Of a stretch of 64,000 bases of DNA, positions 3,239 through 56,352 are shown in pieces. This DNA is from a virus. The notes beneath the pieces were generated by a model. The model searched no databases, was not told the DNA's origin, and worked only from the letters and a program-made list of their open reading frames with translations. Numbering within the stretch: position 1 is the stretch's first letter; each line of letters begins with the position of its first letter. The position numbers and the translations under genes were made by a program. The stretch is from IMG/VR virus record IMGVR_UViG_3300015371_000004, positions 51,950 through 115,949 of that record; one strand, written 5' to 3'.

Positions 3239-3248
3239 GTATTACCCC
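3239..3248 (-). promoter_or_regulatory. GGGGTAATAC promoter-like box
   Basis: GGGGTAATAC reads leftward, with seven bases between its last base and the ATG at 3231. It is a member of the GGGGTA-NN-AC family seen at about sixteen intergenic positions. The spacing would give an almost leaderless transcript if TAATAC is a -10 element. Confidence 0.6.
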
Positions 3249-3757
3249 TAGTCCGAGGGCCACGGGGCACGCTCAAGTTCGTATTCTTCCCGGTCTCGCT
3301 CCAGACGCGACCGATGGATCCCCCGCCGATAGCTGGCTTTCGTCTTCCCGCTCCAGCGCCGATTCCGGTGTTCCGCGCGCGCCTGTTGGCGGTACTTGTC
3401 GAGCAGGTCCTTGCTCATCGGCTTCTCAGGCGTGCCGCGAGCCATCGCGTCCAGCGCTTCTGGAGACATCCCTTTGAGGGCCCTAATTCCATGCCGCTGA
3501 AGCGCGGCCAGCTGGGCCTTCAGGTCCGCGTAGATTTCCTGCTGATTTTGCTGCTTGCGCGCGGCCTGCCGCGCCATCTTCTCAGCCCTCCGCTGCTGAT
3601 GGGCAGCGCCGCGCTGCTGGCGCGCCGCGCGCGCCCGGTCCACCGCGCTCATCCCGGTCGACGCGCAGAACTGCCCGCCGCCCGGCCCGGACGGATTATG
3701 GCAGGGGTTGGCTTCGCTGAACGGACGTCCCTCGCTGGCGGGCCATAGTTCCCACAT
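3248..3757 (-). CDS. basic helical protein with N-terminal NPCHNPSGPGGGQFC tag
   Basis: About 169 residues. Of two nearby ATGs (3763 and 3757), the one at 3757 has better spacing from GAGAGG. NPCHNPSGPGGGQFC lies at about residues 16-30. The rest is rich in Arg, Gln, Ala and Lys and predicted helical (RARAARQQRGAAHQQRRAEK). It lies between the terminase ATPase gene and the gene at 2167. It could be a small virion or scaffold-like protein. No family recognised. Confidence 0.55.
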   Translation of the reverse strand: MWELWPASEGRPFSEANPCHNPSGPGGGQFCASTGMSAVDRARAARQQRGAAHQQRRAEKMARQAARKQQNQQEIYADLKAQLAALQRHGIRALKGMSPEALDAMARGTPEKPMSKDLLDKYRQQARAEHRNRRWSGKTKASYRRGIHRSRLERDREEYELERAPWPSD

Positions 3758-3777
3758 ACTCATCCCTCTCGACAAGC

Positions 3778-4656
3778 TCAGTACGTCTCCCCCGGAGGTG
3801 GGGGGTCGAGCGGCCGATGCCGAATTCGCACCCCACGCCGCTTCACGTCGTCCACCCGCTGGCAGACGAAGTCAGTCGTGTCCCGGATGGTCGAGGTCAC
3901 GAGGAGCTTGTAGGCCCCCGGAAACCGCGTCGTCAGGGACTTCATCAAGCCCGTGTGGATCCCCGGCGCCAAGTCCGTCTCGCCCGCCAGCATGAAGGCG
4001 GCCTCGTCCATGACCCCCATCATCGTGTGATACCCAAAGACGGCCGTCGAGATACTCGACACCGAGAGCCCATAGATCCGCTTGGGGAAGCGGGCCTTGC
4101 GCGCCCCCGCCTTGAATCCCCGGCCGACAAACCATGGCGAGTGCTCGACGCGCGCCTTGAACTCGGTGAAGACGACGTCCGAGGCCTGATCCTTCGAGGA
4201 CGAAGCGTTCAAGACCGCAATGCGCGAATTCGGGCCCAGCATGTAGAAGAGGTCCGCCCGCCTGAGGCAGACGAGCTTGTAGATCGTCCGGGCCATGGCG
4301 CAGCCCGCGATGAAGCCCTTGCCAGAGCCCGAGCCCGCCAAGATGTCGACCTCCCGGACCTGCGGCAGGTCGAAGTAGATCATCAGGTCGACCTTGTCCT
4401 GATTGACCAGCCCTTTGAGGTTCAGGTACTTGGCGCCGAGCATGAACTCCTCGACGTCGACCGGGATCTCGTCGTAGATGAGTTCGTAGACGGCTTCGAG
4501 GCCGGAGAGGTCCCCGGCCTGCGCGCGCTTGAGCAGCCGGTAGATCGCGGTGCGATCCGAGGGCGTCAGCCGCCGGATCTCGTCGAAGGCGTCGAAGCGC
4601 TCCTCTTCAGTCGCGTCCGGCGGGAGAGTCGGGGTCGGATTGAGGGATCTTGGCAT
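3778..4656 (-). CDS. terL: terminase large subunit, ATPase domain only
   Basis: This 292-residue protein has the terminase motor layout: Walker A GSGSGKG (about 108-114), Walker B GVMDEA (about 214-219) and the coupling motif LLVTST (about 251-256). It packages DNA into proheads. The usual large subunit continues for another 150-250 residues as an RNase H-like nuclease. Here the frame ends at RPLDPPPPGETY and the next gene is unrelated, so the nuclease is absent, encoded elsewhere, or separated by a break. The start overlaps the preceding gene by 50 bases. Confidence 0.8.
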   Translation of the reverse strand: MPRSLNPTPTLPPDATEEERFDAFDEIRRLTPSDRTAIYRLLKRAQAGDLSGLEAVYELIYDEIPVDVEEFMLGAKYLNLKGLVNQDKVDLMIYFDLPQVREVDILAGSGSGKGFIAGCAMARTIYKLVCLRRADLFYMLGPNSRIAVLNASSSKDQASDVVFTEFKARVEHSPWFVGRGFKAGARKARFPKRIYGLSVSSISTAVFGYHTMMGVMDEAAFMLAGETDLAPGIHTGLMKSLTTRFPGAYKLLVTSTIRDTTDFVCQRVDDVKRRGVRIRHRPLDPPPPGETY

Positions 4657-5080
4657 CGGCCTGCGTGCGGGTGAACATCTCGATCACAGCCCGGGCACCC
4701 TGCACGGAGACCCCGGCTTCCTGCAGCTTCTCGGCCGCCGTCCGCGCGCGCTCGGCCTCAGCCTGATCCACGTCCTCGTCGAAGTCGACGTTCTTGGCCA
4801 TGCGCGAGAGGAGCGACATCTCGTTGTAGATTTTCGGGTCGACCTTGCCTTCGGCCCGCTCTCTGAGCACCATCACGGCCACCCGCCACCGCTGCACGTT
4901 GAAGGTCAGCCACGGGATCTTGGCAGGCGCGCCGGTCGTCAAGAGACCGAGCGCCTTGTCCATCTCGGCTTCGGCCTCCTGCAGCTTGCGCGACCCCTCC
5001 TCGTCAGAGGGTGGCGTAAGCGCCGACTCGTTCGCGTGCGGGAGATCCCGCTCGACGACGGTCGCAATGGACTCGCTCAT
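4607..5080 (-). CDS. hypothetical protein upstream of terL (small terminase candidate)
   Basis: A 157-residue acidic, mostly helical protein placed directly before the terminase ATPase and overlapping it by 50 bases. That is the position of terminase small subunits. The central KIPWLTFNVQRWRVAVMVLRE block is the most ordered-looking part. No helix-turn-helix is obvious, so the small-subunit role is inferred from position only. Its start also lies inside the end of the sigma region 4 gene (77-base overlap). Confidence 0.55.
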   Translation of the reverse strand: MSESIATVVERDLPHANESALTPPSDEEGSRKLQEAEAEMDKALGLLTTGAPAKIPWLTFNVQRWRVAVMVLRERAEGKVDPKIYNEMSLLSRMAKNVDFDEDVDQAEAERARTAAEKLQEAGVSVQGARAVIEMFTRTQADAKIPQSDPDSPAGRD

Positions 5081-5639
5081 GTTTGGGTACCGGAACTTCG
5101 CACAAAATGGATCGGTGGGTCAACAGCCGCGCCAGCATCTCGGCGTAGCGCTTGGCGATCCGGCTCTCACTGGCGGCAAAGTACGTGGCGGCCTGCGCCA
5201 GATGCTGCCGGACCCGTGGCGACGGCAGCCCGACCCGCTTGGCCGTCTCGGCCTGCGAGGACGTCTGCGAGAACTCCGCCAGAATCTGGGGCATGTGCTC
5301 GGGCGCATCCGGCCAGACCCGGCCCAGATCTCGCCGGACCTCCCAGATCATGAGTCTCGGATGGTCAAGGAGAAACGCTAGCCGCTCGCAGGCGCGCTGC
5401 ATGCGATGGCTGACGGCTTGCTGGGTGAGGTGCAGGGCCTCCCCAATTTGGTCCTGATTTTTTCCGGCGAAGAAATGCAGCTCGATGACGTCACGCTCGA
5501 CTGGCGGGATGGTCTTGAGCAGGCGGCGGACTTGGAGGAGGCGCTCCGGGTTGTGCTCGTCGGCAGGCCGCACAAACTCGATCCATGACCGCAGGTGGAA
5601 GGTCTCGGGATCGATGTCGGTGAGGCTCAGCTCGCGCAT
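5004..5639 (-). CDS. sigma-70 region 4-like protein
   Basis: A 211-residue protein starting at the ATG at 5639, four bases after the preceding stop. Residues about 40-85 (IPPVERDVIELHFFAGKNQD, then QIGEALHLTQQAVSHRM) form a typical sigma region 4 helix-turn-helix, the part that reads the -35 element. A second possible helix-turn-helix follows at about 125-145 (SSQAETAKRVGLPSPRV). No region 2 is present. The region 2 protein is encoded at 17079-17579, so together they resemble a two-subunit sigma. The last 25 residues overlap the next gene in another frame. Confidence 0.7.
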   Translation of the reverse strand: MRELSLTDIDPETFHLRSWIEFVRPADEHNPERLLQVRRLLKTIPPVERDVIELHFFAGKNQDQIGEALHLTQQAVSHRMQRACERLAFLLDHPRLMIWEVRRDLGRVWPDAPEHMPQILAEFSQTSSQAETAKRVGLPSPRVRQHLAQAATYFAASESRIAKRYAEMLARLLTHRSILCEVPVPKHERVHCDRRRAGSPARERVGAYATL

Positions 5640-5643
5640 CGGC

Positions 5644-7933: not shown

Positions 7934-8088
7934 GGCTTTTTCTCGGCTAGCTGCTTCAGCGCCAGATCGCACAGCTCGACGAGGACCTTCAGGTCGACGC
8001 CCACCACCGCGCGCGGATGATTGACGACGCACGTCTTCGCGGTCTCGAAGATCCGCTTCAGCGCCTCAATGTCCGGCGCGGCAATCAC
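7930..8088 (-). CDS. 52-residue helical hypothetical protein
   Basis: A small gene with GTG start at 8088 overlapping the stop of the coiled-coil gene (GTGA) and TGA overlapping the next ATG. The product (starting IAAPDIEALKRIFETAK and ending LKQLAEKKP) is predicted as two or three amphipathic helices. It is kept as a gene because the frame fits both overlaps and the reading is uninterrupted. Function unknown. Confidence 0.5.
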   Translation of the reverse strand: MIAAPDIEALKRIFETAKTCVVNHPRAVVGVDLKVLVELCDLALKQLAEKKP

Positions 8089-8369
8089 GCCAGCGCCTCG
8101 TTCGTGATCCGAATGACGTCGCTGCAGCCCGCAATTTCTTTCTTGATCGCGGCGTGCAGCTCGGCGACCGCCTTGTCCAGCTGGGCTTCAAGCGCCTTCA
8201 GCTCGACGTCGGCCTTGTCCGGCTCAACCCCCAGCGCGCGGATCTCCTGCTCGGTCTGCTCCAGCCGGGTCTTGGCCAGCGCCAGATTGGCCTCGGCCTT
8301 CGCGCGCAGCGTCCGCGCCTGACTCTCCAGCTCCCGCAGCTCGACAACTTTTTTGTAGGTCTGATCCAT
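8085..8369 (-). CDS. coiled-coil protein
   Basis: A 94-residue protein with continuous heptad-like repeats from about residue 5 to 80 (VELRELESQARTLRAKAEAN and so on), predicted as a long coiled coil. It starts nine bases after a GGGGTATCAC box. It lies between the PD-(D/E)XK nuclease and the SbcC C-half, so it could contribute the coiled-coil arm missing from the short split SbcC. That is only a positional inference. Confidence 0.55.
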   Translation of the reverse strand: MDQTYKKVVELRELESQARTLRAKAEANLALAKTRLEQTEQEIRALGVEPDKADVELKALEAQLDKAVAELHAAIKKEIAGCSDVIRITNEALA

Positions 8370-8378: not shown

Positions 8379-8388
8379 GTGATACCCC
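8379..8388 (-). promoter_or_regulatory. GGGGTATCAC promoter-like box
   Basis: GGGGTATCAC reads leftward with nine bases to the ATG at 8369, in the 23-base gap after the nuclease gene. It is preceded by GGTT, as at 29167 and 34885. Member of the GGGGTA-NN-AC family. Confidence 0.55.
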
Positions 8389-13307: not shown

Positions 13308-14126
13308 TTAGCCGAGCAAGTCGTCGAGCGAGGCTCCCGGGAGCGGACCGGAGGCGGCGACTGCCGCGCCGGTAGGGGCCTCCCCAATCAGCTTGCGGAT
13401 CTCGTCGTCAGGCACGTCACGCCCGATGGCTCGCCGCAGTTCGCTGTGCACTGCGTCGAGCCAGTTCTTGAGCGCGACCCCGTACTCGGCCTGAAACTTC
13501 GCGTGCGCGACCATGGCCTCCGCACACGGGACGATCGTCATGTTCTGGTACTGCTCCTCAGTGCAGGTCACCTTGACGTCGTGGGTGGCCAGATCGTGCT
13601 CCTTGTGAACCTCCTGCAGCGTCTGGAAAATCTTCGCGCCGAAGACCCAGATTTTCAGCTCGAACGAGAACGGCTTCCGGAAGGCCCCCTTCGGGTCGGT
13701 CGCGTAGACGACCACCGGCGAGGCGAACTTCTTGCTCGACTCGCCGAGCATCTCGCAGCAGCCTTCCTTCTTCGTCATGACCTCGTTGTAGAGCGTCTTG
13801 CCGTCCGGCCCCTGCGTGGTCGTGCGCCGGAAGGACGAGCGACAGATCACCGGGCCCTTGGTCGCGTCATGGAAGTGACGCCGGGCCGCCTGAATCCGCT
13901 TGAGGTCCAAGACCGCCAGCCGGTCCGTGATGTTCTTGCGGCCTTTGTAGAAGTCGACTTGTGTCCGCGCCGCCGCGGCCTCATCGCCGATCTCAACCGT
14001 CTCGTACTGCGGCAGATCCCGGAACGATTGCCCAATCGCGTTGGGCTGCTGCGCCGTGGCCGGGGGTTGCGGAGCGGTCTGAGGCAGCGCCGCGTCGAGC
14101 GGATCCGCCACTGTGGGGGTATCCAT
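13308..14126 (-). CDS. ssDNA-binding-like protein (gp32-type)
   Basis: This 272-residue protein has a disordered Pro/Gln/Ala N-terminus. Its core includes VICRSSFRR, EGCCEMLGE, FASPVVVYATD, FELKIWVFGAKIFQTL and HDVKVTCTEEQYQNM. This core resembles large-phage single-stranded DNA-binding proteins, and the protein ends with the acidic-hydrophobic tail PGASLDDLLG, as SSBs do. It has its own promoter-like box (14176) and a ribosome binding site (CTGGAG), in keeping with the high amount needed. The family assignment rests on pattern resemblance. Confidence 0.55.
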   Translation of the reverse strand: MDTPTVADPLDAALPQTAPQPPATAQQPNAIGQSFRDLPQYETVEIGDEAAAARTQVDFYKGRKNITDRLAVLDLKRIQAARRHFHDATKGPVICRSSFRRTTTQGPDGKTLYNEVMTKKEGCCEMLGESSKKFASPVVVYATDPKGAFRKPFSFELKIWVFGAKIFQTLQEVHKEHDLATHDVKVTCTEEQYQNMTIVPCAEAMVAHAKFQAEYGVALKNWLDAVHSELRRAIGRDVPDDEIRKLIGEAPTGAAVAASGPLPGASLDDLLG

Positions 14127-14175: not shown

Positions 14176-14185
14176 GTTATACCCC
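14176..14185 (-). promoter_or_regulatory. GGGGTATAAC promoter-like box
   Basis: GGGGTATAAC reads leftward and includes the TAA stop of the HU-like gene. About 49 bases separate it from the ATG at 14126, which has its own ribosome binding site, so here the transcript would have a normal leader. Member of the GGGGTA-NN-AC family. Confidence 0.6.
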
Positions 14186-15820: not shown

Positions 15821-17082
15821 GAGAGCAGCTGCTGGGCTTCCGGCCACAGCTCCACCTGACTCTCGGGCAGCGGCTGCACCGAGCCCCACGTCGACCCGGC
15901 GCTGACCGACCAGTGCATGGCCGCCCGCTCGCGCCAGCGCGCCACTGTCGGCGTCGTCACCAGCGTGGCGTGCAGCTCCCGTAGAAACCCCCGGACATCA
16001 GCGTCGACCGGCAGCTCGGCCGCGACGGCGTGCCGGGTCAGGATCATCCGGGCCCGCCACTGCTGGTCGAGCGCGCGCGCCAGCCACGCCAAGAGTTCGC
16101 CGGTCTCCTCGTAGACCCGCTGCTCCTGCGCTGGATACGCCGACAGCACGCCTTCATAGACCGAGGCCGACGGCAACCCCTGCGCCACTGCATACTCGTC
16201 CGGCGTGCTCCACGTGATCGGGTCCTCGTGAGCCGCCATGGCCGTCCGGACAAACGGCGTCGACAGGGAAAACTGGGCCCAAAATTTTCCGGACTCGGAT
16301 GGCACCGCGACTCGAAGTTCGGTCGGCAGCGTATTGAGCGCCGGGCCAGCCGCCGCAAAGGTCCAGTGCCGGTGGAACCGCCACACCGGGTTCAGGTAGA
16401 CGTAGATGCCATCCCGTTCCGACGAGGCCACGCTGGCTGCCAATCCCCCCGCGCGCTGCGCGCAGAGGTCAGCCCGGCGCCACTCCTCGTACGTCCTGAG
16501 CCAGACGGGATCTTGGCTCACGGTCTTCCACAGCTTCGACCGGCGCACCGCGCGCACCGCCACCGTCCCGAGCGCAGGCTTCAGGGCAGGCGTGAGCCGA
16601 TTGACGATCGCGACCTGCTCATCGACGACAGCCTTGTACTTGGCCTCATCGAACACGACACCGTGCCGATTGAGCGCCACCAGTACGGGCGCCACCACCG
16701 CATTTTCCACCGGGCGCGCCAAGGGCTGATCAACGAACATGGCTCGCTCGACCGCCGACTCCAGCGACGTCACATGCCAGTCCGCATCGACTCTCGCGAA
16801 CACCTGCTCGACGCTCAGGTCCTGCAGGTGGTCCCACGCGATCGACTGACGAATCCCCGGCTGCAACGTCCGCAGGACGTCGACCACGTCCCATGTCGAC
16901 ACGAGACCCCGATGCTCTGTGAGCACCGTCGCGCAGGCCATCCAGTCAGCCGACGTCCATTCCCGTGTGTCGCCGCCGTAGGCCTCGCCATCCCGGACTG
17001 CGACCAGATAGCCCGCCCCAGCAGCCAGACCCAGTCGGCCACCGATGCCCGTCAGCGCTTTCAGATCGTGGAAGGTCTTCAC
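15817..17082 (-). CDS. degenerate family A polymerase-like protein
   Basis: A 421-residue protein with GTG start overlapping the sigma-like stop. Residues about 120-150 (ENAVVAPVLVALNRHGVVFD) resemble the helix that opens the thumb of Pol I (APVLxxMExxGVxVD). Later, GPALNTLPTELRVAVPSESG followed by KFWAQFSLSTPFVRTAMAAH and EDP lines up with the Pol I palm (NLQNIP...VLLSADYSQIELRVLA...GD), but the catalytic aspartate position is not Asp. No motif C (HDE) is found. It looks like an inactive polymerase relative. The active polymerase is at 44609-46816. Confidence 0.4.
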   Translation of the reverse strand: MKTFHDLKALTGIGGRLGLAAGAGYLVAVRDGEAYGGDTREWTSADWMACATVLTEHRGLVSTWDVVDVLRTLQPGIRQSIAWDHLQDLSVEQVFARVDADWHVTSLESAVERAMFVDQPLARPVENAVVAPVLVALNRHGVVFDEAKYKAVVDEQVAIVNRLTPALKPALGTVAVRAVRRSKLWKTVSQDPVWLRTYEEWRRADLCAQRAGGLAASVASSERDGIYVYLNPVWRFHRHWTFAAAGPALNTLPTELRVAVPSESGKFWAQFSLSTPFVRTAMAAHEDPITWSTPDEYAVAQGLPSASVYEGVLSAYPAQEQRVYEETGELLAWLARALDQQWRARMILTRHAVAAELPVDADVRGFLRELHATLVTTPTVARWRERAAMHWSVSAGSTWGSVQPLPESQVELWPEAQQLLS

Positions 17083-17579
17083 GCGAGCACCGGCTGAAGC
17101 GCGCCGAGCAGCGCCGCATGGTCCTTCTTCGTGATCCGGCCCGTCCGATCCACCCGCTCAATCACCGGGAGTAGCTCCGGCTTCGCCAGCAGGAACTCCC
17201 GCAGCTCACGGATGTAAAGGTCGTCGGCCTGCGTGGCGGCCTTCGCCGTCCGCGCGTCGAGCCGGTACTTGTTCTGCCACGGCCCGCCGCTGTCCACGCG
17301 GCTGTAGGCCCGATCGAGCTGGAGAGGATGCAACCGGCGGGAAGCAGCGCGATGTTTGTTCCGCGCGACACTTTGACACACGAGGTAGAGGTAGGACGTG
17401 AAGGCCGAGCGGTCCTTGGTGTAGCGGTCGAGCAGCCCGTACTTGTGCACGCGCAGGTAGACGTCCTGCACCATGTCATCAAGGTCCTCCTGCCCGATCG
17501 ACGTCACCGTCTTGAGGAAAGCCCGTATCTTGCCGTCGTAGCGCTCTACCAGTGCCTCTAGGGTCCGCGGTGCGTCCAT
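17079..17579 (-). CDS. ECF-like sigma factor (region 2)
   Basis: A 166-residue protein with a sigma region 2 block at about 9-75: LEALVERYDGKIRAFLK, then QEDLDDMVQDVYLRVHKYGL and SAFTSYLYLVCQSVARNKHR. This is the core RNA-polymerase-binding and -10-reading part. The C-terminal half (LREFLLAKPELLPVIERVDR and so on) is not a clear region 4; a clear region 4 is encoded at 5004-5639. The ATG at 17579 follows AGGAG and ECF-type promoter B, so the gene may control itself. It is the first gene of the leftward replication/recombination operon. Confidence 0.75.
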   Translation of the reverse strand: MDAPRTLEALVERYDGKIRAFLKTVTSIGQEDLDDMVQDVYLRVHKYGLLDRYTKDRSAFTSYLYLVCQSVARNKHRAASRRLHPLQLDRAYSRVDSGGPWQNKYRLDARTAKAATQADDLYIRELREFLLAKPELLPVIERVDRTGRITKKDHAALLGALQPVLA

Positions 17580-17597: not shown

Positions 17598-17627
17598 TTT
17601 AGACGTTGGGTTGGCCTAAATTGTTCC
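17598..17627 (-). promoter_or_regulatory. ECF-type promoter B ahead of the sigma-like gene
   Basis: Read leftward, GGAAC (17627-17623), 17 bases, CGTCTAAA (17605-17598). It is 19 bases before the sigma-like ATG with AGGAG between. The -35/-10 blocks and spacer are identical in form to sites A, C, D and E. This copy has no adjacent ATTACAG palindrome. Confidence 0.75.
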
Positions 17628-19046: not shown

Positions 19047-19056
19047 GTAATACCCC
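19047..19056 (-). promoter_or_regulatory. GGGGTATTAC promoter-like box
   Basis: GGGGTATTAC reads leftward in the 19-base gap between genes, directly after a TGA stop and nine bases before the GTG at 19037. Member of the GGGGTA-NN-AC family. Confidence 0.55.
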
Positions 19057-20269: not shown

Positions 20270-20648
20270 CTCGTCCTCCCTCTGGTATTACCCCGTCGCG
20301 CCGGTCACGTGGGAGCAGGAACGGATAGCGGTCGCGTCGATTCTGGTCAGGCGTCCCCCAGTAGCCATGGAAGGGATTGACGCATTCCTCATTGTCGCAT
20401 TCGGGCAGGTGGCAGGCCTCGAAGCCGTTGTGGTCGTAGAGCGCGGTGTTGTCCCTGATGCAGAGGGCGACCCGGAAGGCCGGGACGATCAGCTGTTTCT
20501 TGGTGCCCGGGTCTCGGCAGATCCAGATCACCGGGCGCCTGTAGCCGCCGAGCTTGATCGACATGGCGCCGGTCCAGTCCCAGCAGCTGAACCAGTCGGT
20601 GATGACCACCTTGTCCCAGAACCTGCGGCGGAGCGGCTCGTCGATCAC
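20220..20648 (-). CDS. HNH endonuclease
   Basis: A 142-residue protein with SCWDWTGA, GYRRPVI, then DHNGFEACHLPECDNEECVN and PFHGYWGTPDQNRRDR. This is the HNH/zinc arrangement (H-x-C-DN-x-CVNPxH...GTxxDN) of many phage free-standing homing-type nucleases. It may be a mobile gene. The last 30 residues overlap the next gene, and a GGGGTAATAC box lies inside this end. Confidence 0.75.
   Translation of the reverse strand: MIDEPLRRRFWDKVVITDWFSCWDWTGAMSIKLGGYRRPVIWICRDPGTKKQLIVPAFRVALCIRDNTALYDHNGFEACHLPECDNEECVNPFHGYWGTPDQNRRDRYPFLLPRDRRDGVIPEGGRDGLVASGATNGRRPKA
20285..20294 (-). promoter_or_regulatory. GGGGTAATAC promoter-like box
   Basis: Reads leftward, inside the end of the HNH gene and 15 bases before the ATG at 20269, with an AGAGGGAGG ribosome binding site between. 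Member of the GGGGTA-NN-AC family. Confidence 0.5.
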
Positions 20649-20933: not shown

Positions 20934-20943
20934 GTTATACCCC
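20934..20943 (-). promoter_or_regulatory. GGGGTATAAC box with leaderless spacing
   Basis: GGGGTATAAC reads leftward, with six bases to the GTG at 20927 and no Shine-Dalgarno sequence between. If TATAAC is a -10 box, transcription would begin at the start codon. Confidence 0.6.
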
Positions 20944-22045: not shown

Positions 22046-22075
22046 TTTAGACGTACGGAAGGCAGGAAAAGTTCA
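22046..22075 (-). promoter_or_regulatory. ECF-type promoter C
   Basis: Read leftward: TGAAC (22075-22071), exactly 17 bases, CGTCTAAA (22053-22046), then AAGGAGG and the ATG at 22027. It differs from the other four only by T for G at the first base of GGAAC. An ATTACAG palindrome abuts the upstream edge. Confidence 0.72.
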
Positions 22076-22091
22076 ATTACAGGACTGTAAT
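22076..22091. promoter_or_regulatory. operator palindrome ATTACAG-GA-CTGTAAT
   Basis: Perfect 7-base arms with a 2-base centre, directly upstream of the -35 block of promoter C. The same palindrome is at 25397 and, with one mismatch in an arm, at 27346. This looks like a binding site for a dimeric regulator, activator-like by position. The regulator is unknown. Confidence 0.65.
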
Positions 22092-22283: not shown

Positions 22284-22293
22284 GTACTACCCC
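22284..22293 (-). promoter_or_regulatory. GGGGTAGTAC box with leaderless spacing
   Basis: Reads leftward, with five bases to the ATG at 22278. It overlaps the stop of the zeta-like gene. Member of the GGGGTA-NN-AC family. Confidence 0.55.
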
Positions 22294-25366: not shown

Positions 25367-25396
25367 TTTAGACGTAAGGTAGGGTCAAAAGGTTCC
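25367..25396 (-). promoter_or_regulatory. ECF-type promoter D
   Basis: Read leftward: GGAAC (25396-25392), 17 bases, CGTCTAAA (25374-25367), then AATAAGTGGTAGGAGG and the ATG at 25345. The operator palindrome abuts the upstream edge. Confidence 0.78.
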
Positions 25397-25412
25397 ATTA
25401 CAGAACTGTAAT
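25397..25412. promoter_or_regulatory. operator palindrome ATTACAG-AA-CTGTAAT
   Basis: Perfect palindrome arms next to the -35 block of promoter D and directly next to the stop of the leftward gene upstream (25413). Same sequence class as at 22076 and 27346. Confidence 0.68.
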
Positions 25413-27314: not shown

Positions 27315-27344
27315 TTTAGACGTGTGGAAGGGGCAAAAGGTTCC
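27315..27344 (-). promoter_or_regulatory. ECF-type promoter E
   Basis: Read leftward: GGAAC (27344-27340), 17 bases, CGTCTAAA (27322-27315), then ATAGGTGTAGGGAGG and the ATG at 27292. Its -35 flank GGAACCTTTTG is identical to promoter D. Confidence 0.78.
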
Positions 27345-29120: not shown

Positions 29121-29166
29121 GACCCCTCCTGCCCCTCTACCGGCATCACGTCCCCCTTCTGCCAGA

Positions 29167-29176
29167 GTGTTACCCC
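29167..29176 (-). promoter_or_regulatory. GGGGTAACAC promoter-like box
   Basis: GGTTGGGGTAACAC reads leftward, 46 bases before the ATG at 29120. Member of the GGGGTA-NN-AC family with the GGTT prefix seen also at 8379 and 34885. Confidence 0.55.
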
Positions 29177-31487: not shown

Positions 31488-31497
31488 GTATTACCCC
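31488..31497 (-). promoter_or_regulatory. GGGGTAATAC promoter-like box
   Basis: Reads leftward and includes the TAA stop of the zinc-ribbon gene. It is 116 bases before the ATG at 31371. Member of the GGGGTA-NN-AC family. Confidence 0.5.
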
Positions 31498-33723: not shown

Positions 33724-34229
33724 GCTGCCCCCACGAGTGGCCAGCCCTGATCCTTCGTCGACAGGATCCGCGGGCGGCCGGGCCACTGAATCCCGATGGC
33801 CGGATCGTCCCACCTCAGGCCCGCTTCGGCCTCCGGCCGGTACGCGCCGGTGACGGTGTAGACCACGATCGTCCCCTCGCGCATCACGAAGTAGCCGTGC
33901 GCGCACCCTGCGGGCACGGCCAGCGCCCACGGGGACTGATCGCTCAGGTAATACCCCACCCAGCGCCGGAAGGTGTCACCGGGCCTCAGGTCCACGATCA
34001 CATCAAAGATTTCGCCCTTGATCACGCTGATGAGCTTGGCCTGCTCGTACGGCGGCTGCTGGTAGTGCAGGCCGCGAAGCGTCCCGTAGTACGGATTCTC
34101 GACGACGTTGACCTGCGTGACGGGGCTGATGGGGCTGACGGTCGAGAGCGCGCCGCGCACGTCCCGGAACGCGAATTTCGGGACGAGTTGCACGCCGGGC
34201 AGGTCTTCGAGTGGCAGACCGGATGCCAT
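33675..34229 (-). CDS. RmlC-like dTDP-sugar 3,5-epimerase
   Basis: A 184-residue protein from the ATG at 34229 (TAATG overlap). The RmlC cupin motifs are clear: TLRGLHYQQPPYEQAKL (His of the active site), GEIFDVIVDLR, FRRWVGYYLS, LAVPAGCAHGYFV. It is expected to epimerise a dTDP-4-keto-6-deoxy sugar, as in L-rhamnose synthesis. RmlA, B and D are not in the window. The end is disordered and Ser-rich. Confidence 0.8.
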   Translation of the reverse strand: MASGLPLEDLPGVQLVPKFAFRDVRGALSTVSPISPVTQVNVVENPYYGTLRGLHYQQPPYEQAKLISVIKGEIFDVIVDLRPGDTFRRWVGYYLSDQSPWALAVPAGCAHGYFVMREGTIVVYTVTGAYRPEAEAGLRWDDPAIGIQWPGRPRILSTKDQGWPLVGAACVSIDSPSSDSSPQP

Positions 34230-34884: not shown

Positions 34885-34894
34885 GTTATACCCC
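34885..34894 (-). promoter_or_regulatory. GGGGTATAAC box, leftward side of the divergent region
   Basis: GGTTGGGGTATAAC reads leftward toward the HD-domain gene (ATG 34866, GGGAGG between). It faces away from the identical box at 34924. Confidence 0.65.
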
Positions 34895-34900
34895 AACCCT

Positions 34901-34917
34901 GTGACCCAACCTGTCAC
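34901..34917. promoter_or_regulatory. inverted repeat GTGAC-N7-GTCAC between divergent boxes
   Basis: GTGAC (34901-34905) and GTCAC (34913-34917) form a perfect 5-base inverted repeat. Its centre (34909) is exactly midway between the two GGGGTATAAC boxes, so it is a likely operator acting on both. Confidence 0.6.
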
Positions 34918-34923
34918 GCGGCC

Positions 34924-34933
34924 GGGGTATAAC
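34924..34933 (+). promoter_or_regulatory. GGGGTATAAC box, rightward side of the divergent region
   Basis: Reads rightward ahead of the DUF932 gene (60 bases to the ATG at 34994). The same ten bases as at 34885 in opposite direction. Confidence 0.65.
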
Positions 34934-36887: not shown

Positions 36888-37036
36888 CCGCGCCACCCAA
36901 GCCGACGCCACCTCCGCTCCGAGAGCAGGCGGACTTCACAGTCAGCACGATCATCGGGCTCTGGTTCATCGTGGTCCTCTTAATCGTCGTCGGCGTCACC
37001 GTGGGTGCGCTGATCTGGCCGCGACCCGGGGTATAA
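36884..37036 (+). CDS. 50-residue membrane protein
   Basis: A short Pro-rich N-terminus, then one membrane segment (IIGLWFIVVLLIVVGVTVGA). The TAA stop lies inside the GGGGTATAAC box. Function unknown. Confidence 0.5.
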   Translation: MTAPPKPTPPPLREQADFTVSTIIGLWFIVVLLIVVGVTVGALIWPRPGV

Positions 37037-37037
37037 C
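37028..37037 (+). promoter_or_regulatory. GGGGTATAAC promoter-like box
   Basis: Rightward, 12 bases before the ATG at 37050; includes the previous TAA. Member of the GGGGTA-NN-AC family. Confidence 0.6.
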
Positions 37038-38938: not shown

Positions 38939-39100
38939 GTTCCGGGGCGGTCGGCCGGGACAGACGGCCGCGCAAGCGGGCTGGGAACTTCGGCGCGCAA
39001 GACGAACGGGCCGTCCCGGGTCAATGTAGCCGGGGGCGGCGATTGGGAGCGCTGGAGATTGCGGCTCGGCCGCCAATTCTGCGTTGGGGGAATACACGGT

Positions 39101-41136: not shown

Positions 41137-41146
41137 GGGGTATAAC
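41137..41146 (+). promoter_or_regulatory. GGGGTATAAC promoter-like box
   Basis: Rightward, immediately after the membrane-protein stop and ahead of the zinc-ribbon gene. Member of the GGGGTA-NN-AC family. Confidence 0.6.
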
Positions 41147-41751: not shown

Positions 41752-43235
41752 TGCAGCTGCCCGACGCCGTCCTTCGGAGCGTGCTCAGGCTCCCGGCCGA
41801 CGATGGGGCCGTCATCGAAGCCAACTTCGTCACCGTGCACGCCGCGGCCGACGAACTCCTCGATGCGGGGAGCATCGATCGGCAGCTCATCGAGTTCACC
41901 GCCGACGTCTTCCAACGGTCGAAGGGCTACCCGGACTACGCGCTGGTCTACGGCCACTTCCGGGGCAAGGCGGATCAAGGGGACGGCGTGGCCATGGCGG
42001 TCGCGACCCGGCTGGACCTCGTCACGGTCTCACCCCCGGCGCTGCTCCTCGGGGCCGCCCTCACGTATGCGCTCGATCAGTTTCGGGCGGACGTCTTCGG
42101 TCAAGCGCTTGGGCAGGCGCTCTTTCAGGCCAGCCAGATCCTCGGATCCGGGATCGATCAGACCGTCATGCACCACGGCCAGCGGATCACCCAGCGGCTG
42201 CAGGGACCGCAGCACGCCTACGATTTCCTGTCGAACGAGATGGGCCATCTGTCAAAAGTGACAGTCGGCGCGCCTGCCGAGGGGTCGCTCCATGAGGACA
42301 CCGAGGCAGTCTGGAAGCTCTACGAGTACCGGCGGGATCACCCGCTGGAGACCGGGATCCTCTCGGGGATCGACACAATCGACTCGGCCCACCATGGCCT
42401 CAGGCGCGGGGATCTGGCACTCGTCCTCGGGTTCACGGGGCACTTCAAGACCACGTTCACGATGAGCTGGGCCTACAAGGCGGCCATCCGGCAAGGCAAG
42501 CACGTCGCCGTCGTCTCGTGTGAGACGGCGCTCGATGATCTGCGCGCGATCTTCTACGTAATGCACGCGACCCATCCGAAGTTTCAGGATGACCCCAGCT
42601 ACCTGACCATCAGTGTGGACGCGGTGGTCCGGGGCACGCTGACCCGGGCGCAGGAGCGCTTCTTCAAGCACGTCATCGACGACCTGAAGACGAACACGAC
42701 GTACGGACGCGTGGTCTACCGGGAGCCCTCGGCCGACATGACGGTCGCCGACATCCAGCGCTGGGCCGAGGCGCGCAACCGCGAGACCGAGATCGCGCTC
42801 CTCCTCATCGACTACTTGGGGCTGGTCAAGCCCAGTGCCTCTCTGCGCGCCGCCGACACCGGCTCCCGGCTCAATGACGTGATTCGATCGTCCAAGCTCC
42901 TTGCCATGGGATTTGCCGCCGGGCGCGGGGTATCACTCCTCAGCCCGTTCCAAGCGAGTCGCGAGGGCTGGAAGAATGCGGAGAAGGTGGGCGGCAAGTA
43001 CCGGCTGAGCGATTTCTCGTGGGCGAACGAAGCCGAGAAGAGCGCCGACGTGATCTACTACGTCTGGCTCGACGATCTGCTCCGCAGCTCGAAGGAACTG
43101 GCGATTGGCAATCTGAAGACGCGGGTGGTGCCGATGATTCCCGATCAGTTTCGCATTTTCGTGGACCCGGTGACGCGCCTCGTCGACAATCTCGACCTGA
43201 CGTCGCCTGCGCAGGCACCCGTCGACATTTCGTGA
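41751..43235 (+). CDS. dnaB: DnaB-like replicative helicase
   Basis: A 494-residue protein. The N-terminal helical part is divergent. The RecA-like core has LETGILSGIDTIDSAHHGLR, Walker A GFTGHFKTT (about 226-234), VAVVSCETALDDLRAIFYVM, Walker B EIALLLIDYLGLV and the LSPFQASREG motif. These give the order of DnaB-family helicases. It would unwind the fork with the primase and polymerase nearby. The P-loop has GHFKT in place of the more usual GxGKT. Confidence 0.85.
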   Translation: MQLPDAVLRSVLRLPADDGAVIEANFVTVHAAADELLDAGSIDRQLIEFTADVFQRSKGYPDYALVYGHFRGKADQGDGVAMAVATRLDLVTVSPPALLLGAALTYALDQFRADVFGQALGQALFQASQILGSGIDQTVMHHGQRITQRLQGPQHAYDFLSNEMGHLSKVTVGAPAEGSLHEDTEAVWKLYEYRRDHPLETGILSGIDTIDSAHHGLRRGDLALVLGFTGHFKTTFTMSWAYKAAIRQGKHVAVVSCETALDDLRAIFYVMHATHPKFQDDPSYLTISVDAVVRGTLTRAQERFFKHVIDDLKTNTTYGRVVYREPSADMTVADIQRWAEARNRETEIALLLIDYLGLVKPSASLRAADTGSRLNDVIRSSKLLAMGFAAGRGVSLLSPFQASREGWKNAEKVGGKYRLSDFSWANEAEKSADVIYYVWLDDLLRSSKELAIGNLKTRVVPMIPDQFRIFVDPVTRLVDNLDLTSPAQAPVDIS

Positions 43236-44608: not shown

Positions 44609-46816
44609 GTGTTCACCGTTCTCACCGACGACCAGTCGTTTGTCGGCGGCGCGCGCTCGTGGATGGCCTCCACGGACTACCGGCTGGCCACGTCTCCCGA
44701 TGACCTCTGGAACTACGCCGATGGCTATCTGCAGCGGGGGATCTCCCCGGCCGCCGACTTCGAAGCCACCGGGCTGAACGTCTGGACCGACAAGATCGTC
44801 GGCATGTCCCTCAGCTTCGAGAAGGGGCACGGCATCTACGCGCCCTGCCGCCACTTCGAAGGCGCCGAGTACAACATCCCCGTCCCCACGCTCGTCGAGG
44901 TCATCGACGCGATCGACAAGCGCGCCGACGAGTGCTGGTGGTACCACAGCGACTTCGACCATGAGATGGCCCGGAACGACTGGCGGTGGCAGCCGACGTT
45001 TGGCAAGTGGCGGGACGCCATGATCGGCGTCTTTCTGGAGTTCCCGGACGCGCTGACCCACGGCCTCAAGGACACGGCGTACCGGCTGCTCGGCTGCGAG
45101 CTGATCGAGTATCTGGAGATCATCGGCTACGTCAAGCGCAAGGGGCAGCCGATCCCCGGGTTCGAACGGGTCCATCCAGTCGATGCCCCGTCCTATGCCT
45201 GCGCCGACAGCGACTTCACCCGGCGGCTGGCGCGGCTCTCCATCGTCCAGAAGGCGATCAAGGACCAGTCGCTCATCTGGGATCTGGAGCACAAGATCCT
45301 GCCGCCCATCCGCGCCGGGATCGACCATGGGGTCCCGACCGACGGGATCTACCTGACGCTGCTCTCGGCTGACGTGCGCCGTCAGCTGGCGATCCTCGAA
45401 CAGGAGGTCAAGGAGGCGCTGGGCGTCCCCACCGACTTCAACCTCCGGAGCCGGGAGAAGCTGGGCGACCGGCTCGAAGCCCTTGGCGTGCCGGTCGCCG
45501 AGCGGGTCACAAAGATCAACCCGCGGACGGGCGCCGGGTTCATGTCGACACGGAAGGCCACGCTCGACCTCCATGCGGACCGGTTCCCGTTCTGCGCGTC
45601 CCTCGTGAAGTACGCCGAGCTGGGCGCCGCCGAGCGCAATTACATCCGCAAGGCGATTGCCGCGCGCGACCACTTCGGCCCCAAAGTCCGGATTGCCTTC
45701 AACACCATCGGCGCGCCGACCGGGCGCATGTCCTCCGGGGGCGCGGGAAGGACGCAGGCCGAGGCGTTCTCGAAGGGGTACGCGAACCTCAACGGGCAGT
45801 CATGGCCGGACCCGGAGAAGAAGGACTACCTGCCGGACGTCCGGGCGGGGGTGAGCGTGGCCGCGCTCGACACCGACGAGTGGGTCATCGTCGCCATCGA
45901 CTACGAGCAGGTCGAGCTGCGGGTCCTCGCCAACGTCTCGGGCGAGGAGGTCTGGGCGGAGTCCTTCCGGAAGGGGATCGACATTCACCGGACGACGTAC
46001 GCCACGGCCCACAATGTCCCGGTCGCGACGGTCGACAAGCCGAAGCGCAAGAAGGGCAAGACGCTCTCCTTCGCGATCGTCTATCAGGCCACCCCGAAGA
46101 CGGTCGCCAAGCAGGCCGGGATCCCGGAGGCCGAGGCCGACCGGCTCATCAAGGCCGTGCTCGACCGCTGCCCGCGCCTGAAGAAGTGGGTCCTCGCCAC
46201 CAAGGCCCATGCGGCGGCCTACGGGTTCGTCCAGACGTTCTTTGGCCGTCGGCGCGTGCTCAAGCATTACTTCGGGGGCGACTACTCCACCAAGGCCGCG
46301 AGGAAGCTGAAGGCGCAGGGGGAGCGTGAAGGCGTGAACGCGCCGATCCAAGGGGGAGCGGCCGACGTCTTCAAGATTGCCGTCTACAAGGTCGCCAAGC
46401 TCCTGCAGGGCCTACGTGCGGAGGAGGACTGGATCCCGATCATGTGGGTGCACGATGAGACGGTCTCCCTTGTCCGCCGGAGCCGCCTGTACGAGCTGCT
46501 GCCCAAGGTGGTCGAGACGATGGAGTTCAAGGTCAAGGGCTGGACCGTTCCCCTGAAGGTGGTGCCCGAAGTGGGCTGGAACTGGGGGCTGGACGACCGG
46601 CGCAACCGGGGCGCAGGGCTCCTCTCGTGGGGAACATGGTGCCAGCGGTACCCACCGGAGACGGCCTCGACGCCCTTGGTCTGCTGGCTGCCCGCCTCAG
46701 CCTACCCGGCGCCGCCGCCAGCCCCAGCTCCGGAGCCCGAGGACGAGACGCTCGACGATCTGCTCGATGAGGACCTCGACGACATCACCGATGCGCTCGA
46801 TGGGGACTCGGGGTAA
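44609..46816 (+). CDS. polA: family A DNA polymerase with 3'-5' exonuclease
   Basis: A 735-residue protein from the GTG at 44609. Exonuclease motif I is ADFEATGL (about 49-56). Palm motif A is AIDYEQVELRVLAN (about 427-440), motif B KKGKTLSFAIVYQ and motif C WVHDETVSL (about 612-620). All catalytic acidic residues are kept. It would copy phage DNA. The C-terminal 35 residues are a Pro-rich, acidic extension (PEDETLDDLLDEDLDDITDA), like the tails of SSBs. The polymerase-like protein at 15817 lacks these residues. Confidence 0.9.
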   Translation: MFTVLTDDQSFVGGARSWMASTDYRLATSPDDLWNYADGYLQRGISPAADFEATGLNVWTDKIVGMSLSFEKGHGIYAPCRHFEGAEYNIPVPTLVEVIDAIDKRADECWWYHSDFDHEMARNDWRWQPTFGKWRDAMIGVFLEFPDALTHGLKDTAYRLLGCELIEYLEIIGYVKRKGQPIPGFERVHPVDAPSYACADSDFTRRLARLSIVQKAIKDQSLIWDLEHKILPPIRAGIDHGVPTDGIYLTLLSADVRRQLAILEQEVKEALGVPTDFNLRSREKLGDRLEALGVPVAERVTKINPRTGAGFMSTRKATLDLHADRFPFCASLVKYAELGAAERNYIRKAIAARDHFGPKVRIAFNTIGAPTGRMSSGGAGRTQAEAFSKGYANLNGQSWPDPEKKDYLPDVRAGVSVAALDTDEWVIVAIDYEQVELRVLANVSGEEVWAESFRKGIDIHRTTYATAHNVPVATVDKPKRKKGKTLSFAIVYQATPKTVAKQAGIPEAEADRLIKAVLDRCPRLKKWVLATKAHAAAYGFVQTFFGRRRVLKHYFGGDYSTKAARKLKAQGEREGVNAPIQGGAADVFKIAVYKVAKLLQGLRAEEDWIPIMWVHDETVSLVRRSRLYELLPKVVETMEFKVKGWTVPLKVVPEVGWNWGLDDRRNRGAGLLSWGTWCQRYPPETASTPLVCWLPASAYPAPPPAPAPEPEDETLDDLLDEDLDDITDALDGDSG

Positions 46817-46819
46817 TAC
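46810..46819 (+). promoter_or_regulatory. GGGGTAATAC promoter-like box
   Basis: Rightward. It includes the TAA of the polymerase and is 12 bases before the ATG at 46832. Member of the GGGGTA-NN-AC family. Confidence 0.58.
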
Positions 46820-47438: not shown

Positions 47439-47770
47439 TTCACAAGATCAACCCCGTGCAGAGCGGGCTGGCGAACTTCACGCCCGCGGAGAGGACCGAG
47501 TGGGCCTACATCGGCGGGCGGCTCTTCTTTCGCAACATGCCCCCGAAACTTGCGGCCCACAAGGGCGGCAATTCGATCGACAGCACCTCCCGGCTCTGGT
47601 ACCGGCCCTCGGGGGAAACCGCTGGCGGGATGCGCTGGGACGTGGACCCGACCCCGCCGCATCTGATGTGTGAGTGCGGCAGCGACACCTTCGTGCTGTC
47701 GTACGGCGACTACCAGCTGATTGCCACGTGCACGAACTGTCAGTACACCGAGAGCGTCTTCGATGGCTAA
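47435..47770 (+). CDS. 111-residue CxxC protein
   Basis: GTG start overlapping the previous stop. CECGSDTF and CTNCQYTE form a zinc ribbon near the C-terminus. It overlaps the HerA-like start by eight bases. Function unknown. Confidence 0.55.
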   Translation: MIHKINPVQSGLANFTPAERTEWAYIGGRLFFRNMPPKLAAHKGGNSIDSTSRLWYRPSGETAGGMRWDVDPTPPHLMCECGSDTFVLSYGDYQLIATCTNCQYTESVFDG

Positions 47771-53413: not shown

Positions 53414-55033
53414 ATGGGGAAGATCATCAGTCTGGCCAGCTCGGCCTATCAGATGAGCGAGCCGAGCGCCTGTGAAGTCCAAGGCTCCGGGTTGCCGCTC
53501 GGGCCGGTGCCACCGAAGAAAATCCACTGCATTCTCCCGTCGAGCCCGTGGCTCGCCGACTCGAAGACCAACATTCCTCTCGGCGTGCTCTACGTGGCGG
53601 GCCTGCTCCGGGCTCATGGCCACGAGGTCTGCGTCACCTCGATGCTCGACAAGCGCTACGAGGGGAACATCCACCTGCCCGAGGAGGTCATGGACGCCGA
53701 CGTCCATATGTTCGGGTTCTGTACGCCGCAGTTTGGGGAGGCGCTTGAGCTGGCGGCCTACATCAAGGACCGGGTTCCGAACGCCCTCCTTGTGGCGGGT
53801 GGGCCCCATCCGAGCTACGAACCGGCCGAGGTGAAGGCCGCCGTCCGGCAGGAGAGCTACCACACCAAGGGCCCGCTCCGGGCCCGGCGCGACTACGGCA
53901 AAGGGATTGACACCCGGCCACTCTTTGACACCGTCATTGTCATGGAAGGTGAGCGCGCGGTGCTCCAGATGCTGTCCGACTGGTATCAGGGCGTGCTCCA
54001 GCCCTTCTACTACGGGGACAAGCAGGACGCCATGGATCTGGACGCGATCCCGTTCCCGGCGTGGGACCTGCTCCCCGATGATCACATCTTCAACGACGGC
54101 GTCGCGGTCATGAAGAAGCGCTACATGGAGTCGCCGGTCCGCCCGGGCACGTGGCCGGTGATGTCGATGATCGGGACCCGCGGCTGCCCCTACAAATGCA
54201 CGTACTGCTCGACGCCGTGGATCGGGCAGAAGCCGCGGTACCGCTCGCCCGCCAATCAGATCGCCGAGCTGCAGGCGATCTTCGATCAGGGCGTCCGGCA
54301 GATCAAATGGCAGGACGACACCTACACGCTCCACCGGACCAAGCTCCGGGAGCTGGCCGAGGCGATCGATCAGGCGTTCGGGCGGGAGACGTTCGCCAGC
54401 CGCGTGCACACCCGGGTCAACACCATGGACGACCACGTCGCCGAGTCGCTCACGATGATGAGCTGCAAGGTCACCTGCTTCGGCATCGAGTCGGGGTCTC
54501 AGCAGGTGCTCGACGCCAACCAGAAGGGCACCAAGGTCGCCCAGAACACGGCCGCGCTCATCAAGGCCAAGGAGCACGGGTTCTCGACGGTGGCGTTTCT
54601 GGTGGCCGGGCTGGCAGGCGAGACCATGGAGACGGCCAAGGAGACGCTCGGCTGGCTGGAGAAGGTCCGGCCGTCCCTCGACTACTGCAATCTGGCGGTC
54701 GGGATCCCCTACCCCGGCTCCCGGTTCTGGACCCATCCGAGGGAGTCAGGGATCGAGATCGTCGACTACAACTACGACAACACATGGATTGTCGGGTTCA
54801 ATGCGCGCGACGAGATTCTGGTCCGGCCCGACGGCTGCACCATCGACGAGATGTTCCGGATCAAGGAGATGATGTTCAAGGGGCTCTGCGATCTCGGATT
54901 TGCGAAGGCGGAGTGGGACGAGGACGTCCGCATCCGTCGGCAGCAGGAGGCCGCGGCCAGCGCAGGCGTGCTTGCGAAAGCGGCCGAAGAAGGTGGGACT
55001 GCGGCCGGGAGCCTGAGCTACGCCGGGCACTGA
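53414..55033 (+). CDS. B12-binding-domain radical SAM enzyme
   Basis: A 539-residue protein. The N-terminal 200 residues form a cobalamin-binding-like Rossmann domain (NIPLGVLYVAGLLRAHGHEV ... MFGFCTPQFGEALELAAYIK ... LLVAGGPHPSYEP). RGCPYKCTYC at about 255-264 carries the CxxxCxxC iron-sulphur motif, and a TIM-barrel follows (IKWQDDTY, FGIESGSQQVLDANQKGTK, GLAGETMETAKETLGWLE). Such enzymes methylate or rearrange unreactive carbons. Substrate unknown; the neighbouring glycosyltransferase and methyltransferase suggest a sugar or surface-related target. Confidence 0.8.
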   Translation: MGKIISLASSAYQMSEPSACEVQGSGLPLGPVPPKKIHCILPSSPWLADSKTNIPLGVLYVAGLLRAHGHEVCVTSMLDKRYEGNIHLPEEVMDADVHMFGFCTPQFGEALELAAYIKDRVPNALLVAGGPHPSYEPAEVKAAVRQESYHTKGPLRARRDYGKGIDTRPLFDTVIVMEGERAVLQMLSDWYQGVLQPFYYGDKQDAMDLDAIPFPAWDLLPDDHIFNDGVAVMKKRYMESPVRPGTWPVMSMIGTRGCPYKCTYCSTPWIGQKPRYRSPANQIAELQAIFDQGVRQIKWQDDTYTLHRTKLRELAEAIDQAFGRETFASRVHTRVNTMDDHVAESLTMMSCKVTCFGIESGSQQVLDANQKGTKVAQNTAALIKAKEHGFSTVAFLVAGLAGETMETAKETLGWLEKVRPSLDYCNLAVGIPYPGSRFWTHPRESGIEIVDYNYDNTWIVGFNARDEILVRPDGCTIDEMFRIKEMMFKGLCDLGFAKAEWDEDVRIRRQQEAAASAGVLAKAAEEGGTAAGSLSYAGH

Positions 55034-55036: not shown

Positions 55037-55046
55037 GGGGTATAAC
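55037..55046 (+). promoter_or_regulatory. GGGGTATAAC box with leaderless spacing
   Basis: Rightward, six bases before the GTG at 55053 and no ribosome binding site between. Member of the GGGGTA-NN-AC family. Confidence 0.62.
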
Positions 55047-55052
55047 CGAATC

Positions 55053-55667: not shown

Positions 55668-55674
55668 GGACATC

Positions 55675-56031
55675 ATGAGCAAAGTCGACGAGGCCATCGC
55701 CGAGATCGATCAGGCGCTGGCCGACATGGCCCCCGCGCATGAAGGGCTGAACGACTACAGCGCCTTGGACATCAAGCCGGAGACCAAGGCACAGGTCGAC
55801 GCGGCCATTGCGCTCTACGACACGCGGAAAACCAAGCTCGAAGCGGCGCGCGAGGGTCTCGTGAGTCTGGTCGGGAACGGGTACCCGGTCTTGGAGATCC
55901 CGGACGTGAGCGCTTCGGTCTTGGCCGACCTCCAAGAGAACGCGGCGACCATCGAGGCGGCGCTGGCGAAGTTCTCCTCGAACGCGCCGACATCCCTCGG
56001 ACTATCGGGAGCACCGCCGGTCCCGAAGTAG
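55675..56031 (+). CDS. helical protein sharing its C-terminal end with the Ig-like protein
   Basis: A 118-residue, helical protein (VDEAIAEIDQALADMAPAHE and so on). Its last residues, TSLGLSGAPPVPK, resemble NFGLTASAPIPK of the Ig-like protein just before it. Possibly both use the end for interaction. Function unknown. Confidence 0.5.
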   Translation: MSKVDEAIAEIDQALADMAPAHEGLNDYSALDIKPETKAQVDAAIALYDTRKTKLEAAREGLVSLVGNGYPVLEIPDVSASVLADLQENAATIEAALAKFSSNAPTSLGLSGAPPVPK

Positions 56032-56037
56032 GTTCCC

Positions 56038-56340
56038 GTGGCTGTCGTCGTCATCGCCCCGTGCGGCTGCTCGTTGATCAAGGTCAAGGCCGGGCTGTGT
56101 GACAGTTATGGCCCGGCCGACGTCCCGGCCCTCGAACGGGGGGAATTCCCGCCCAGCCGGGACGAGCTGCCGACGGCCCCGATGTCGACCCTCCGTGAGC
56201 TGCTCCGCTGCCCGGCCTGCCGCCAGCACTTCGACGAACAGATCTGTCTGGCGGCCGATGACCTCTCCATGGTCCTGTCCGAGGACCAGATCGCCGCCGC
56301 CAAGCACCTGCTCCAGAAGCACCACGCCAAGCACGGCTGA
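56038..56340 (+). CDS. 100-residue CxxC protein
   Basis: GTG start. IAPCGCSLIK and LLRCPACRQHFDEQICL have Cys ligands for a zinc site, then a helical C-terminus with HH. It ends two bases before the next promoter-like box. Function unknown. Confidence 0.55.
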   Translation: MAVVVIAPCGCSLIKVKAGLCDSYGPADVPALERGEFPPSRDELPTAPMSTLRELLRCPACRQHFDEQICLAADDLSMVLSEDQIAAAKHLLQKHHAKHG

Positions 56341-56342
56341 CC

Positions 56343-56352
56343 GGGGTATAAC
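56343..56352 (+). promoter_or_regulatory. GGGGTATAAC box with leaderless spacing
   Basis: Rightward, six bases before the ATG at 56359. Member of the GGGGTA-NN-AC family. Confidence 0.62.

What the first reader, a model, noticed from the sequence alone, without database searches (positions are those of the whole stretch)
3239..56352. GGGGTA-NN-AC boxes at about sixteen intergenic positions, many with leaderless spacing
Boxes at 3239, 8379, 14176, 19047, 20285, 20934, 22284, 29167, 31488, 34885 (-) and 34924, 37028, 41137, 46810, 55037, 56343 (+) always point along transcription. In five cases (3239, 20934, 22284, 55037, 56343) the gap from TANNAC to ATG/GTG is 5-7 bases and no Shine-Dalgarno is present. 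A -10 element there would start the mRNA at the start codon. GGGGGAATAC at 39086 has the same gap. No -35 element is evident, so an extended -10 or a dedicated factor is implied.
Basis: partly seen in the sequence, partly recalled or inferred. Interest (0 to 1): 0.88.

Follow-up and report, generated by a model that had tools for sequence, protein, structure and literature searches.

The report
Single-box promoters for a phage sigma factor
A complete 116-kb phage genome from an unidentified bacterial host carries about nineteen near-identical ten-base start signals, often so close to genes that the messenger would begin at the start codon, and it also carries separate genes for the two halves of a sigma factor that could read such signals.

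Summary
GGGGTANNAC occurs 18 times in the window (0.9 expected) and 23 times in the phage genome. It is the most intergenic of all 47,466 patterns of its shape. Only the box is conserved, with no -35 element. In boxes set back from the start codon, the base 7 nt downstream is G in 11 of 14, as expected for a +1. Start codons lie 5-7 nt after the box in five genes without a Shine-Dalgarno. This fits a -10-type element spanning -16 to -7. A primary-sigma -10 is unlikely because -7 is always C, and the box is all-or-nothing.

The phage encodes two separate sigma pieces: a 166-aa region-2-only, ECF-like protein (17079-17579) and a 211-aa region-4 protein (5004-5639). One is immediately upstream of the sigma-2 gene, and seven have a TTACA-N4-TGTAA-like dyad upstream.

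Best model: the box is a single-element promoter for host RNAP carrying the phage sigma-2 protein. The parallels are phiEco32 gp36 and T4 gp55/gp33. Promoter identity is well supported; which sigma reads it is inferred. No relative sharing the box was found.

The parts
3239..3248 (-). Box GGGGTAATAC, leaderless, gap 7 to ATG of a 354-aa gene (2167-3231)
8379..8388 (-). Box GGGGTATCAC, gap 9 to ATG (8085-8369); the first gene of the run that leads to the sigma-4 gene
14176..14185 (-). Box GGGGTATAAC, gap 49 to ATG (13308-14126), followed by a RecA-family gene
19047..19056 (-). Box GGGGTATTAC, gap 9 to GTG (18624-19037)
20285..20294 (-). Box GGGGTAATAC, gap 15 to ATG with Shine-Dalgarno GGGAGGA (82-aa ORF)
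20934..20943 (-). Box GGGGTATAAC, leaderless, gap 6 to GTG at 20927 (91 aa)
22284..22293 (-). Box GGGGTAGTAC, leaderless, gap 5 to ATG at 22278 (61 aa); contains the stop codon of the upstream zeta-toxin-like gene
29167..29176 (-). Box GGGGTAACAC, gap 46 to ATG with Shine-Dalgarno (28779-29120)
31488..31497 (-). Box GGGGTAATAC, leadered, nearest starts at 29-44 nt
34885..34894 (-). Box GGGGTATAAC, left half of a divergent pair, gap 18 to ATG with GGAGGA; HD-type phosphohydrolase downstream
34924..34933 (+). Box GGGGTATAAC, right half of the divergent pair, upstream of the 373-aa gene
34895..34923 (.). 29-bp spacer of the divergent pair with the imperfect dyad TGTGACCCAACCTGTCAC; possible regulator site
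   Evidence: sequence; role is inference
37028..37037 (+). Box GGGGTATAAC upstream of the helicase gene 37184-38938
41137..41146 (+). Box GGGGTATAAC upstream of 41407-41751 and the DnaB-like helicase 41751-43235
46810..46819 (+). Box GGGGTAATAC overlapping the end of the DNA polymerase gene, gap 12 to ATG
55037..55046 (+). Box GGGGTATAAC, leaderless, gap 6 to GTG at 55053
56343..56352 (+). Box GGGGTATAAC, leaderless, gap 6 to ATG at 56359 (183 aa)
39086..39095 (+). One-mismatch box GGGGGAATAC, gap 5 to ATG at 39101; the only near-variant found with leaderless spacing
33948..33957 (-). Exact box inside a gene, sense; possibly a chance match
42927..42936 (+). Exact box inside the DnaB-like gene, sense; possibly a chance match
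17079..17579 (-). Sigma-2 protein, 166 aa: sigma-70 region 2 only, ECF-like, no region 4 found
5004..5639 (-). Sigma-4 protein, 211 aa: sigma-70 region 4 plus a second helix-turn-helix, no region 2
17599..17626 (-). ECF-type promoter directly upstream of the sigma-2 gene (GGAACAATTT, ACGTCTAA)
141..168 (+). ECF-type promoter (GGAACCTTTTT-N-TACGTCTAAATA)
22047..22074 (-). ECF-type promoter with a TTACA-N4-TGTAA dyad at 22077-22090
25368..25395 (-). ECF-type promoter with a TTACA-N4-TGTAA dyad at 25398-25411
27316..27343 (-). ECF-type promoter with a TTACA-N4-TGTAA dyad at 27347-27360

Best explanation
GGGGTANNAC is a promoter that consists of a single -10-type element, positions -16 to -7, with transcription starting at the seventh base after it. 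It is read by the host's core RNA polymerase carrying a phage sigma factor, most likely the region-2-only protein encoded at 17079-17579. That protein can contact the -10 region and the start-site DNA but has no region 4 to demand a -35 sequence. The phage's separate region-4 protein (5004-5639) may fill the sigma-4 site on the polymerase without sequence-specific DNA contact, as gp33 of T4 does. In about a third of the units the start site coincides with the start codon, so the mRNA is leaderless; in the others a short leader carries a Shine-Dalgarno. The regulon is mainly replication, recombination and small unknown genes, not the virion genes, so it looks like a middle class. The sigma-2 gene itself sits behind an ECF-type promoter, which suggests a cascade. 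Shown here: the box, its uniqueness, spacing, +1 signal, lack of a -35, the two sigma genes and the second promoter class. Inferred: that sigma-2 reads the box, the role of sigma-4, the timing, and leaderless translation.
For: Enrichment and location. The box is the only conserved element between -60 and +60. G at the predicted +1 in 11 of 14 non-leaderless sites, and no other downstream offset reaches 9 of 14. Start codon 5-7 nt after the box in 5 of 19 against 0.004 per site expected. All-or-nothing conservation with C fixed at -7. Region-2 sigma protein: PF04542 31 bits, phrog_1740, ECF sigma-E region 2 as best sequence and fold match. Region-4 protein: PF04545 57 bits. The contig joins in frame across its ends, so the genome is very probably complete and the gene survey is not cut short. 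Precedent: phiEco32 gp36 lacks region 4, its promoters are the single element tAATGTAtA, and +1 lies 6-8 bp downstream (PMC8948821). T4 gp55 and gp33 form a split sigma that reads an 8-bp promoter with no -35 (PMC2988020).
Against: No 5'-end data. The sigma-2 protein is ECF-like, and ECF sigma factors usually read CGTC-type -10 motifs, so the phage sigma could instead read the ECF-type class found in the same genome. No relative carrying both a sigma-2 homologue and the box could be found to test co-occurrence. The host is unknown, so a host sigma with this specificity is not excluded. The structure models are weak (pLDDT 61 and 50).
Confidence: 0.55

Rival explanations
1. The box is an extended -10 promoter read by a host sigma factor (primary, or group-3 SigB/SigF type, whose -10 is GGGTAT). 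The phage's split sigma instead reads the ECF-type promoters GGAACYTTTT-N-ACGTCTAA.
For: The box contains GGGTAT in 13 of 19 sites. Sigma-2 is ECF-like, and the ECF-type class stands next to its own gene, as in autoregulation. The region-4 piece scores with the SigB/F/G model. Box-driven genes include replication genes, which are often early. Thermus phage P23-45 uses extended -10 promoters with host sigma-A (PMC7403470).
Against: C is invariant at -7, where primary sigma factors take T; no GTTT -35 of the SigB/F class (0 hits); strict conservation with almost no variants. ECF-type promoters also occur in phage contigs with no detectable sigma region 2, such as G061 of 122 kb, so a host ECF sigma can serve them.
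Confidence: 0.27
2. The box is a one-directional regulator site, such as the stoperators of Cluster A mycobacteriophages or the start-associated sequences (SAS) of Cluster K, acting on elongation or translation and not on initiation.
For: Like an SAS (GGGATAGGAGCCC, 3-7 bp before starts, one orientation, non-virion genes; PMC3203893), it has a G-run on one side, often C/T on the other, one orientation and closeness to starts. Stoperators also point along transcription.
Against: It carries no Shine-Dalgarno-like core. Half of the boxes lie 15-260 nt from the start with a separate Shine-Dalgarno. G at the predicted +1 (11 of 14) has no reason under this model. No immunity repressor or integrase was identified, though not every gene was scanned.
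Confidence: 0.1
3. The box is the promoter of a phage single-subunit RNA polymerase.
For: Such promoters are near-invariant and phage-specific.
Against: No T7-type polymerase match in the genome (the control genomes also gave nothing, so the negative is weak). The element is shorter than known single-subunit promoters, and its spacing fits a sigma -10.
Confidence: 0.04
4. Chance or composition artefact.
For: GC-rich genome with many G-runs.
Against: 18 against 0.88 expected in the window; top of 47,466 like patterns for noncoding location.
Confidence: 0.01

Closest known systems
phiEco32 sigma factor gp36 and its middle/late promoters (tAATGTAtA)
   Same: Phage sigma without region 4; one short, highly conserved element; no -35; start site 6-8 bp downstream; several sites per genome (PMC8948821).
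   Different: Different motif (GGGGTANNAC); about 19 sites against six known; leaderless spacing in a third; a separate region-4 protein is present; the hosts and phages show no detectable relation here.
T4 late transcription: gp55 (sigma-2) and gp33 (sigma-4 mimic)
   Same: Split sigma encoded by two distant genes; 8-bp promoter without -35 (PMC2988020).
   Different: The region-4 protein here has recognisable sigma-4 sequence, gp33 has none; the box serves replication and small genes, not virion genes; no sliding-clamp link was tested.
Bacillus subtilis SigO/RsoA two-subunit sigma
   Same: Region 4 and region 2 on separate proteins (PMC8103513).
   Different: Cellular, adjacent genes; here a phage, with genes about 12 kb apart.
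Thermus phage P23-45 extended -10 middle/late promoters
   Same: No -35 needed (PMC7403470).
   Different: Uses host sigma-A remodelled by gp39; here a phage sigma piece is present and the element is not TGn-TATAAT.
Cluster K mycobacteriophage start-associated sequences
   Same: One-directional G-rich/C-rich 13-mer just before starts (PMC3203893).
   Different: SAS contains a Shine-Dalgarno; here no Shine-Dalgarno in the box, and half of the sites lie far from starts.

Membership tests
Single-element phage sigma promoter (phiEco32 gp36 type) | One conserved element, no -35 | tested here: met
Single-element phage sigma promoter (phiEco32 gp36 type) | Start site 6-8 nt downstream of the element | tested here: inconclusive
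   Sequence signal only: G at offset +7 in 11 of 14, starts at gap 5-7; no 5' mapping
Single-element phage sigma promoter (phiEco32 gp36 type) | Phage sigma protein lacking region 4 | tested here: met
   17079-17579 matches region 2 only; an unrecognised degenerate region 4 in its C-terminal third is not excluded
Single-element phage sigma promoter (phiEco32 gp36 type) | That sigma reads that element | not testable with these tools
   Needs in vitro transcription
T4 gp55/gp33 split sigma | Separate region-2 and region-4 partners bound to core RNAP | tested here: inconclusive
   Both genes are present; binding not testable
T4 gp55/gp33 split sigma | Sequence homology to gp55/gp33 | tested here: not met
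   Best matches are ECF sigma-E; gp55 (7d7c) appears only at E 5.7
T4 gp55/gp33 split sigma | Activation by the sliding clamp; drives virion genes | tested here: not met
   The boxes are absent from the virion-gene runs; clamp dependence itself not tested
Extended -10 promoter of a primary sigma factor | TGn at -15/-14 and T at -7 | tested here: not met
   GGGG upstream and invariant C at -7
SigB/SigF (group 3) promoter | -35 GTTT with -10 GGGTAT | tested here: not met
   GGGTA(T/A) is present, GTTT at 14-17 nt absent
ECF promoter (second class in this genome) | -35 GGAAC and -10 CGTC at about 16-bp spacing | tested here: met
   Ten sites; the recognising sigma is unknown
Start-associated sequence (Cluster K) | Shine-Dalgarno-bearing 13-mer 3-7 bp before the start | tested here: not met
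Stoperator (Cluster A) | Bound by the immunity repressor | not testable with these tools
   No repressor identified; not all genes were scanned

The most novel reading that the evidence does not exclude
A two-tier phage transcription cascade. ECF-type promoters, read by a host ECF sigma and controlled by a TTACA-N4-TGTAA-binding regulator, switch on a stand-alone ECF-derived region-2 protein. That protein alone redirects host RNA polymerase to GGGGTANNAC and so creates a regulon in which a third of the messages begin at the start codon.
Probability: 0.3. Interest if true: 0.75.

Novelty: new variant of a known kind. Interest (0 to 1): 0.52.

Why it matters
If right, the genome gives a compact case of promoter rewriting by a sigma factor cut down to its -10-reading half. 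It has about nineteen matched target sites, a natural split of regions 2 and 4 over two genes, and start-codon-proximal initiation as a way to couple the class to leaderless translation. It would make directly testable which base contacts an ECF-derived region 2 can make without region 4. It also shows that a raw metagenomic phage contig can yield two complete promoter classes and candidate sigma genes without any culture. The element type itself has precedents, which limits the surprise.

Tried and rejected
Close relatives: DNA of 41000-62000 has no near match among 50,697 phage records. PolA, helicase, portal, RecA and sigma-2 queries found no close kin. 52 viral loci with a HerA-like ATPase relative show no enrichment of the box; contigs with the ECF-type promoter show none either. 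The 72.6-kb, 37%-GC contig G001 has 5 boxes against 1 control; the two I could read are not next to starts, so I dropped it. Host: HerA relatives in genomes span many phyla, so the host is unassigned; 15 of those genomes lack the ECF-type pattern, and GGGGTATAAC is not enriched in the four genomes tried. A third promoter class for the virion genes: none found by k-mer enrichment. Idea that the sigma-2 C-terminus is a broken region 4: not supported by alignment against shuffles. Sigma-4 structure model: pLDDT 50, not used. Single-subunit polymerase: no match, but the control was silent. Early reading of 47763-49592 as terminase corrected to HerA-like ATPase, the name its best annotated match carries (the PHROG terminase hit is partial).
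Full report
What the sequence is. The window is bases 51950-115949 of a 115,949-bp virus record. It is a tailed phage: portal protein, DnaB-like helicase, family-A DNA polymerase, RecA, primase and helicase genes. The two contig ends join in frame inside one gene, across a glycine-rich linker into a repeat-like domain (DTTPPTVSGVQFKLDG), so the record is very probably a complete circularly permuted genome. No tRNA genes and no known RNA families were found (the Rfam search covered the window only). No close relative was found in 50,697 phage records or by seven viral-contig scans. The host is not known. Relatives of its HerA-like ATPase are spread over many bacterial phyla.

Noticed in passing
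141-168, 17599-17626, 22047-22074, 25368-25395, 27316-27343; L001:14500, 14593, 15116; L003:15857, 15927: Ten strongly conserved ECF-type promoters (GGAACYTTTT-N-TACGTCTAAATARGTG), seven with a TTACA-N4-TGTAA-like dyad just upstream of the -35; two divergent pairs.
   Followed up: partly
L083 (whole record G054, 20.6 kb); also L085 (G056), L089 (G060), L090 (G061): Other phage contigs carry many ECF-type promoters (eleven in 20 kb in G054) although no sigma region 2 was detected on them; phages living on a host ECF sigma may be common.
   Followed up: partly
1047-2162, 3248-3757, 22287-23378, L002:317-1321, L002:1328-2074, L003:2100-2621, L003:3054-4223: Seven proteins, two of them zeta-toxin-like, share an N-terminal motif like NPCHxPxGxxxGGQFC; it looks like a common tag on toxin-like or head-associated proteins.
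   Followed up: no
34895-34923: The divergent box pair encloses an imperfect dyad TGTGACCCAACCTGTCAC, a possible regulator site between two divergent promoters.
   Followed up: no
53414-55033: B12-binding radical SAM protein in a phage genome, similar to methyltransferase-type families.
   Followed up: no
29121-30919 and L001:7436-9238: Two stretches of about 1.8 kb with little coding signal; the first holds repeated ATGAGGGA-like motifs.
   Followed up: no
47763-49592: HerA-like ATPase (partial match to terminase models) with relatives in 52 viral and 23 cellular loci across many phyla; much more widespread than any other gene of this phage that was searched.
   Followed up: partly
contig ends (window 64000 / L001:1): A gene continues in frame across the contig ends, so the record is probably a complete circularly permuted genome although classed as linear.
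   Followed up: yes
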